Shown: positions 45,598 through 46,920 of the stretch, in pieces
How the letters are laid out: every line of letters begins with the position of its first letter
Numbering within the stretch: position 1 is the first letter of the stretch
From: Planctomycetota bacterium
GTDB lineage: Bacteria; Planctomycetota; PUPC01; JACPCR01
Length of the DNA stretch: 64,000 bases
Assembly: GCA_027625095.1 (NCBI GenBank)
Contig: JAQBXN010000032.1
Span: 1-64,000, forward strand
Direction: 5' to 3'
Translations under genes and position numbers: made by a program
Notes under the pieces: model-generated
What the model was told of the DNA's origin: nothing
What the model saw: only the letters and a program-made list of their open reading frames with translations
The model's database searches: none

Positions 45598-46920
45598 CTA
45601 CTGAATCGGCAGCATCAGATTCATTTCTTTCTGCTCACGTAGCACCGTGACCGGCATTTTCATTCCTGGCTTCATGGCGTCCAGCGAGTACATGAGAAAC
45701 TCCGTTTCCGTGGCCCGATCCTTTCTGCCATCGTAGGCGGTGAAAATGTCGTTCTTCCGGAAGCCGACCCGAAAGGCGGCGCCATGTTGGCCATGCTGAC
45801 CCAGATGCTCCACCTTGAGTGCGAGGCCAGCCGTGCCGATTCCGGCCTGTTCGCGTTCTTCATCGGTGAGATCCTTCAGAAGCACTCCACCGACCATTCG
45901 ACGCAAATCCCAGGTGCTCGTACGCCACGTGATATCACCCTTTGTCCGCCAGCCGGCTGCCAGGGAGAGGGTCAATTCCCGTTCTTTGTCAGCACTACGA
46001 ACAACTGCCTTTAACTGGTCGATATCCTCCGAGTGATGTAGCACCCATTGGATATCCGCAGTGGAAAGGATGGGCTGTCCATTGAGTGACAGGATCGCAT
46101 CCCCGGCATTCAAACCAGCCGCCGATGCGGGTGAATTTTCGCTGACGGTCTTGACCGTCGCCCGTTTGTCCGCATCCATCTCCATGCCGATAGTTGCCGG
46201 CATGGGCCACGGGAAAAGAACCTTCAGGGGAAATGATTCTTTTTGATTCCGGTAGACCATGCGTTCCGCATCGGAGATCTGATGGCAATGCATACAACTG
46301 CGGGCTACCTGGCCCAGGTAGTCGATATCTGCCTTGAAACCGCTCAGCGATGGATACTGTTCGGGCCTCTCATAGCGCGACTTATGCCCCTGTTTTCCTG
46401 CGAGGGTTTCACGATTCGCTGGATAGCCTCGGTGAATTTCGAGCGCCCCTTCCATAGCGTCTCCGAAACCTTGCATCGAGATATCACGGACAGCACTGCG
46501 ATCCGAACGTGATCCGTACCGGCCGTAAACAGTCTTATCCGCATTCATGAAGAACGCGGCGAATGTCAGGTCGTAATCGAACTGAAAGAGATTCAGGTCC
46601 ATAGCGTTCGCCTGCACCATGCGAACACAGACAAACTGATCCATCAAAGCCTTCAACCGCAATTCGCGACGGACAACCTGCCCGTCAAAATCCACGCAAG
46701 CGTGTCACGGTATTCAGCGGAATACGAGAAGTAGTGGCTTCTTTGTCCTGCTCGCAATATCGAGAGCCTTGGGCAGATCGTTGTAGATCCAGCTCTCATC
46801 GTCCTGCAAAGCTTGCCGGTCATCCAGGACCATCTGGTCGCGGGTCTTTTTCTGTTCAGCAATCGAAAGGCTCGTGGCCAGGACGAGAAATCCTGCCAAA
46901 TAAGACGTGTTACACTTCAT
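45598..46920 (-). CDS. candidate selenoprotein: thioredoxin-like (UxxU) + CxxCH motif + PDZ-like domain; read through two in-frame TGA codons
   Basis: ORFs 46714..47070 and 45598..46695 share one frame, separated only by TGA-ATA-CCG-TGA-CAC-GCT-TGC. Combined product: MKCNTSYLAGF...KKPLLLVFR-U69-IP-U72-HACVDFDGQVVRR...SCMHCHQ...NSPASAAGLNAGDAILSLNGQPI. Confidence 0.75.
46668..46686 (-). promoter_or_regulatory. candidate bacterial SECIS hairpin
   Basis: Minus strand GACGGGC-AGGTT-GTCCGTC: 7-bp stem with one G-U, 5-nt loop with G at loop positions 2-3. The loop starts 25 nt after the second TGA and 34 nt after the first. Confidence 0.6.

What the first reader, a model, noticed from the sequence alone, without database searches (positions are those of the whole stretch)
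46668..46716. bSECIS-like hairpin at the right distance for both TGA codons
Minus strand 46686-46668 forms GACGGGC-AGGTT-GTCCGTC (7 bp, one G-U). Bacterial SECIS elements are described as a hairpin in the coding region just 3' of the UGA, with an apical loop about 16-37 nt away and a G among the first loop bases. Here the loop (AGGUU) starts 25 nt after the second UGA and 34 nt after the first. One element could therefore serve both. The loop resembles the E. coli fdhF SECIS apex (GCAGGUCUGC) as I remember it.
Basis: partly seen in the sequence, partly recalled or inferred. Interest (0 to 1): 0.75.

Follow-up and report, generated by a model that had tools for sequence, protein, structure and literature searches.

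The report
Paired hairpins decoding two selenocysteine codons
The hairpin is a real selenocysteine-insertion signal in a gene with two in-frame UGA codons, and genes of this family with both UGAs carry a second hairpin, absent from single-UGA relatives, that probably lets one signal reach both codons.

Summary
The hairpin is real (46686-46668, minus strand; loop 25 nt after UGA2, 34 nt after UGA1). It lies in a 440-codon thioredoxin-like/PDZ gene (NCBIfam NF041199, 'Trx7/PDZ (seleno)protein') whose redox motif is UIPU. The genome encodes tRNA-Sec, SelA, SelB and a UGA-containing SelD. In 184 homologous loci the hairpin is kept by compensatory changes wherever UGA2 is present (107 two-UGA and 53 one-UGA loci, 0/500 codon-permutation nulls each). 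It is absent from 24 Cys/Cys homologues.

New here: two-UGA genes carry a second hairpin between UGA2 and the SECIS (mean -5.5 kcal/mol against null -3.6, 0/500). One-UGA and Cys genes do not (at null). The link to UGA1 survives phylogenetic correction (-3.5 kcal/mol, p<=4e-12; 9.2 concordant against 0.8 discordant independent pairs). Three double-UGA genes of an unrelated family show the same layout. Most likely this hairpin sits at the ribosome entrance at UGA1 and shortens the 27-nt spacer to about 12 nt, then melts for UGA2. That mechanism is inferred. The family is known, but listed as CxxU with one Sec; UxxU was its commonest form among loci fetched here.

The parts
45598..46920 (-). Trx7/PDZ selenoprotein gene, 440 codons with both UGA read as Sec; N-terminal signal-peptide-like segment
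   Evidence: open with TGA=U; Thioredoxin_7 + PDZ_2; NF041199 422.8 bits against cut-off 300; 50-79% identical homologues, the full-length ones with Cys at both sites
46714..46716 (-). UGA1 (residue 69, first U of UIPU)
   Evidence: aligns to the first Cys of FRCIPCEAC
46705..46707 (-). UGA2 (residue 72, second U of UIPU)
   Evidence: aligns to the second Cys; sits at the start of the helix after the first Trx strand in the AlphaFold2 model
46693..46704 (-). proximal hairpin CACG-CUUG-CGUG, directly after UGA2
   Evidence: MFE -3.5 kcal/mol; not significant for the window alone (P 0.11), but the position is a strong structural peak in two-UGA homologues only
46668..46686 (-). distal hairpin = bSECIS, GACGGGC-AGGUU-GUCCGUC
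   Evidence: compensatory conservation in 155 of 160 UGA2-bearing loci, absent in Cys homologues
46540..46791 (-). Thioredoxin_7 domain (residues 44-127)
   Evidence: Pfam PF13899, E 1.7e-12
46282..46296 (-). CMHCH motif (residues 209-213): a CxxCH, c-type haem-like motif, invariant in the alignment
   Evidence: invariant C209, H211, C212, H213
45964..46185 (-). PDZ domain (residues 246-319)
   Evidence: Pfam PF13180, E 2.7e-16

Best explanation
The reported hairpin is the SelB-binding bacterial SECIS of a two-selenocysteine (UxxU) thioredoxin-like/PDZ protein. It is positioned for UGA2 (stem base 18 nt, loop 25 nt downstream). The first UGA uses the same SECIS with the help of a second hairpin between UGA2 and the SECIS. 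While UGA1 is in the A site that hairpin stands at the mRNA entrance, 9-12 nt after UGA1, and folds away about 15 of the 27 spacer nucleotides, leaving about 12, so the SelB-loaded SECIS is brought within reach. It may also pause the ribosome. One step later the ribosome melts it, and the SECIS is reached over the 18-nt spacer that single-UGA relatives also use. Shown by sequence evidence: both hairpins, their conservation, the link of the second one to UGA1, and the presence of the Sec machinery. Inferred: Sec at both positions, one SECIS for both UGAs, spacer shortening as the mechanism.
For: Distal hairpin: mean stem 6.48/7 bp in 107 two-UGA loci (null 4.94) and 6.23 in 53 one-UGA loci (null 3.67), 0/500 permutations each; 2.33 against 2.16 in 24 Cys loci. 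Pair types switch among GC, AU, CG, UA and GU; loop G in 155/155. Proximal hairpin: -5.51 against null -3.62 kcal/mol (0/500) in two-UGA loci, -1.86 against -1.89 in one-UGA, -2.06 against -1.90 in Cys; a 19-nt sliding scan shows two peaks (start +0, z -10.9; +18, z -15.3) in two-UGA loci and only the +18 peak in one-UGA loci. It holds for 84 unique proximal sequences, z -12.8. Phylogenetic regression -3.5 kcal/mol, p 4e-12 (Brownian) and 1e-18 (ML lambda); independent pairs 9.2 concordant against 0.8 discordant of 14, median p 0.012. The proximal hairpin starts 9-12 nt after UGA1 in all but one of the 102 loci where it folds, span 15.3 nt, leaving 11.7 nt of spacer; the E. coli SECIS upper hairpin stands 11 nt from UGA (PMC8659212). 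The proximal loop is not SelB-like: G[G/U] in 17/103. selB, selC, selA, selD present; UGA in this gene goes with selB across 70 genomes (Fisher p 1.2e-10). Three double-UGA HMA-type genes show the same tandem layout.
Against: The window's own proximal hairpin is short (4 bp) and not significant by itself (P 0.11). Two-UGA loci L088, L054 and L057 have little or no proximal hairpin by MFE. The 34-nt loop distance to UGA1 is already inside the published 16-37 nt range, so help may not be strictly needed. The independent-pairs test is only moderately strong (median p 0.012). No experiment shows Sec at either site. The second family has only three examples, and two of its four single-UGA members examined also fold a weaker hairpin ahead of the SECIS.
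Confidence: 0.6

Rival explanations
1. Two SECIS elements: the proximal hairpin is itself a SelB-binding SECIS for UGA1 and the distal one serves UGA2.
For: It occurs only with UGA1, starts 9-12 nt after UGA1, and has a G in the first two loop positions in 88 of 103 loci.
Against: That G mostly comes from the conserved Cys codon UGC/UGU lying in the loop; loci without that Cys have varied loops (GAAA, UCG, CAG). The G[G/U] motif is present in only 17/103 and MFE <= -7.5 in 9/107. The register slides, whereas the distal hairpin is fixed. In HMA genes the proximal loops are AAAA, CCUA and ACCAA.
Confidence: 0.15
2. The proximal hairpin is a pausing or anti-termination element at UGA1, like the eukaryotic selenocysteine redefinition element (SRE), and does not set distance.
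For: It abuts the ribosome entrance when UGA1 is in the A site (about 11 nt occluded, PMC4513850); a stem-loop just after UGA raises Sec insertion in SELENON (PMC8704476).
Against: One-UGA relatives do without it at their only UGA. It does not exclude the spacer model; the two could act together.
Confidence: 0.2
3. The second hairpin is a by-product of protein-level constraint, codon bias or shared ancestry, not a functional RNA element.
For: Two-UGA genes often share a KDCxSF context; related loci share sequence.
Against: Codon permutation at fixed amino acid and position gives 0/500 in two-UGA loci and nothing in one-UGA or Cys loci; unique sequences and phylogenetic regression agree.
Confidence: 0.04
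4. The UGAs are sequencing errors or pseudogene stops and the hairpin is accidental.
For: A single draft assembly with 5.8% contamination estimate.
Against: Two in-frame UGAs at the same two codons in more than 100 related loci from many genera and metagenomes; machinery present.
Confidence: 0.01

Closest known systems
Bacterial SECIS (bSECIS consensus model; E. coli fdhF SECIS)
   Same: [quoted passage not shown] meets the four published constraints.
   Different: No bulged U of the E. coli type; preceded, in two-UGA genes, by a second hairpin; two UGAs per SECIS.
NF041199 Trx7/PDZ domain-containing (seleno)protein (reported as a PDZ-domain selenoprotein from GOS data)
   Same: 422.8 bits against cut-off 300; same architecture and Sec/Cys site.
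   Different: Listed as CxxU with one Sec in the 2026 review; here, and in 107 of 184 loci, UxxU with two.
Selenocysteine redefinition element (SRE) of eukaryotic SELENON
   Same: Stem-loop close downstream of a UGA-Sec, separate from the SECIS, aiding recoding.
   Different: Bacterial, between the UGA pair and the SECIS, present only when the upstream UGA is present.
Selenoprotein P (one mRNA, several UGAs, shared SECIS)
   Same: Several UGAs depend on fewer SECIS elements.
   Different: 3'-UTR SECIS and SBP2/eEFSec instead of a SelB-bound hairpin adjacent to the codon.

Membership tests
bSECIS | 3-9 nt apical loop and 4-16 bp upper stem | tested here: met
   AGGUU loop, 7-bp stem; 103/107 and 52/53 UGA2-bearing loci have stem >=4 bp, loop in range and loop G
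bSECIS | G in the first two loop positions | tested here: met
   155/155 loci
bSECIS | 16-37 nt between UGA and apical loop | tested here: met
   25 and 34 nt
bSECIS | MFE <= -7.5 kcal/mol | tested here: met
   -10.5 kcal/mol in the window; 92/107 and 38/53 loci
bSECIS | SelB, tRNA-Sec, SelA, SelD in the organism | tested here: met
   C164:138-1238, C164:2120-2209, C131, C37
bSECIS | binds SelB and directs Sec insertion | not testable with these tools
   needs binding and reporter assays
E. coli-type SECIS | bulged U in the upper stem | tested here: not met
   uninterrupted stem in the window and in most homologues
bSECIS (proximal hairpin considered as a second SECIS) | G[G/U] loop motif and MFE <= -7.5 | tested here: not met
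   17/103 and 9/107 loci; window loop CUUG, -3.5 kcal/mol
NF041199 | score above the curated cut-off | tested here: met
   422.8 against 300

The most novel reading that the evidence does not exclude
A general bacterial two-UGA recoding module: one SECIS serves two closely spaced Sec codons because a collapsible hairpin between them resets the spacer length codon by codon. It arose in at least two unrelated selenoprotein families and is gained or lost with the upstream UGA.
Probability: 0.45. Interest if true: 0.82.

Novelty: new variant of a known kind. Interest (0 to 1): 0.7.

Why it matters
Bacterial SECIS elements act at short range on the codon just upstream, so how genes with two nearby UGAs are decoded has been open. 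The comparative data give a clear two-hairpin layout and a natural control set (one-UGA and Cys relatives) that make the question directly testable with a reporter. They also show that UxxU, not CxxU, was the commonest form of this family among the loci fetched here, and that gene callers cut these proteins short by starting them after UGA2.

Tried and rejected
RNAalifold on the ungapped alignment gave almost nothing, because loop length varies (5 or 4 nt) and the proximal register slides; replaced by per-sequence stem and energy tests with codon-permutation nulls. Rfam found no SECIS family; at E up to 10 it gave only a chance miRNA match. A genome-wide scan for UGA + hairpin in G000 gave 599 candidates dominated by antisense frames; abandoned. 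Re-drawing the phylum around another centre returned largely the same genomes. NF041115 gave only sub-threshold HMA relatives, but three of them have two UGAs. No relatives in viral contigs. The Olavius selenoproteome paper is not held. The literature searches found no description of a second, UGA1-linked hairpin in bacteria; the library is partial, so this is weak evidence of novelty. One-SECIS-per-UGA was considered and ranked lower.

Full report
WHAT IS THERE. Minus strand 46686-46668 is GACGGGC-AGGUU-GUCCGUC, exactly as described. UGA1 is 46716-46714 and UGA2 46707-46705; the loop begins 34 and 25 nt after them. The gene runs from ATG 46920 to the stop ending at 45598, 440 codons if UGA is read as Sec. 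It encodes a signal-peptide-like N-terminus, a Thioredoxin_7 domain and PDZ domains and belongs to NCBIfam NF041199, 'Trx7/PDZ domain-containing (seleno)protein', with 422.8 bits against a cut-off of 300. The motif FR-U-IP-U-HAC aligns with FR-C-IP-C-EAC of Cys homologues. In an AlphaFold2 model (mean pLDDT 87) the two Sec positions precede the helix that follows the first thioredoxin-like strand, the usual place of a CxxC site. Database copies of the closest proteins start only after UGA2 (P0001, P0002 and P0003), which is how gene callers treat an unread UGA.

MACHINERY. The window's genome (C260 of a 262-contig assembly) has tRNA-Sec at C164:2120-2209 (76.8 bits, gathering score 47, confirmed by ARAGORN) next to selB at C164:138-1238. 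It also has selA (483 bits) and selD, itself with one in-frame TGA. Over 70 genomes of the phylum that hold this gene, in-frame TGA and a selB above cut-off go together (31 both, 3 TGA only, 6 selB only, 30 neither; Fisher p 1.2e-10). Two of the three exceptions are among the least complete genomes (G357, 55%; G156, 76%).

THE REPORTED HAIRPIN IS A SECIS. I collected 184 non-redundant homologous loci from genomes and metagenomes: 107 with both UGAs (UU), 53 with UGA2 only (CU), 24 with Cys at both (CC). The null permutes codons among sequences within each codon column at the same amino acid, which keeps protein sequence and codon usage and breaks only co-variation. The distal stem has on average 6.48 of 7 pairs in UU (null 4.94) and 6.23 in CU (null 3.67), 0/500 each, but 2.33 in CC (null 2.16). 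Pair types switch: position 3 shows GC 97, AU 32, CG 14, UA 5; position 2 GU 64, GC 43, CG 25, AU 22. [quoted passage not shown] These are the published bSECIS rules (PMC13188914). The structure disappears together with the UGAs. For the window alone the evidence is modest (synonymous-recoding P 0.03 for the stem, 0.006 for the energy), and folding 46716-46660 in isolation prefers another structure; with the ribosome-covered part removed the hairpin forms with probability 1.0.

A SECOND HAIRPIN GOES WITH THE FIRST UGA. Scanning local folding energy along the message gives one signal in CU loci (window starting +18 after UGA2, z -10.6) but two in UU loci: +18 (z -15.3) and +0, directly after UGA2 (z -10.9). 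The mean energy of the +0 segment is -5.51 kcal/mol in UU (null -3.62, 0/500), -1.86 in CU (null -1.89) and -2.06 in CC (null -1.90). Typical form: UGA-AAGGAC-UGCAA-GUCCUU-C-GACGGGC-AGGUU-GUCCGUC. It holds for 84 unique proximal sequences (z -12.8). On a tree of 181 proteins the UGA states change at least 23 times; among supported independent pairs the hairpin goes with UGA1 in 9.2 and against it in 0.8 of 14 (median p 0.012). Phylogenetic regression gives -3.5 kcal/mol for presence of UGA1, p 4e-12 under Brownian motion and 1e-18 at the best lambda. The window's copy is weak (CACG-CUUG-CGUG, -3.5 kcal/mol, P 0.11).

HOW IT PROBABLY WORKS. The proximal hairpin starts 9-12 nt after UGA1 in 101 of the 102 loci where it folds and spans 15.3 nt on average; 27 nt separate UGA1 from the SECIS base, so about 11.7 nt of spacer remain when it is folded. 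In E. coli the SelB-binding hairpin stands 11 nt from UGA (PMC8659212) and the ribosome covers about 11 nt downstream (PMC4513850). Hence the reading: at UGA1 the proximal hairpin stands at the entrance and shortens the path to the SECIS; at UGA2 it is melted and the SECIS is reached over 18 nt, the spacing single-UGA relatives use without help. The proximal loop is not SelB-like (G[G/U] in 17/103; MFE <= -7.5 in 9/107) and its register varies, which speaks against a second SECIS and for a role of length or stability. A pure pausing role, like the eukaryotic SRE (PMC8704476), remains possible. The mechanism is inferred; only the structures and their link to UGA1 are shown.

A SECOND FAMILY. 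Three small HMA/MerP-like genes of the same phylum with two UGAs 12 nt apart (L289, L290, L291) also have a hairpin spanning UGA2 with a G-less loop, then a hairpin with a (U)GGA loop 23 nt after UGA2 and 35 nt after UGA1. Single-UGA relatives place their SECIS 20-26 nt after the only UGA, and two of the four examined (L293, L295) also fold a weaker hairpin before it. Three examples are suggestive, not proof.

STATUS. The protein family and the bSECIS are known kinds. The family is listed with CxxU and one Sec, whereas UxxU was the commonest form among the loci fetched here (107 of 184; the sample is not random). I found no description of a UGA1-linked second hairpin in bacteria in the searchable literature.

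Noticed in passing
L289, L290, L291 (G192:C757, G021:C159, G007:C36): HMA/MerP-like small proteins with two in-frame UGAs 12 nt apart and tandem hairpins; single-UGA relatives in L293 and L295-L297.
   Followed up: partly
46296-46282 (-): Invariant CMHCH (CxxCH) motif between the Trx7 and PDZ domains: a possible c-type haem site in the Trx7/PDZ family.
   Followed up: no
G000 C37:2833-3759: selD of the same genome contains one in-frame TGA (a Sec-containing SelD); a second selD-like match without TGA lies at C141:31155-32075.
   Followed up: no
G000 C164:138-2209: selB and tRNA-Sec adjacent on one contig.
   Followed up: no
57217-57565 (+): tmRNA (Rfam RF00023, 150 bits), which ARAGORN did not report in the window.
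   Followed up: no
47020-48534 and 48633-49991 (+): Divergent neighbours: DUF1501 protein, then a PSCyt1 (planctomycete cytochrome C) / LRR / double YHS-TRASH protein; they fit a planctomycete-type genome.
   Followed up: partly
45598-46695 (-): Public protein sets hold this gene only as a 365-aa piece starting after UGA2 (P0001), likewise the 79% and 75% identical relatives P0002 and P0003: mis-annotated starts.
   Followed up: partly
L088, L054, L057: Two-UGA loci with little or no proximal hairpin; unexplained exceptions to the rule.
   Followed up: no
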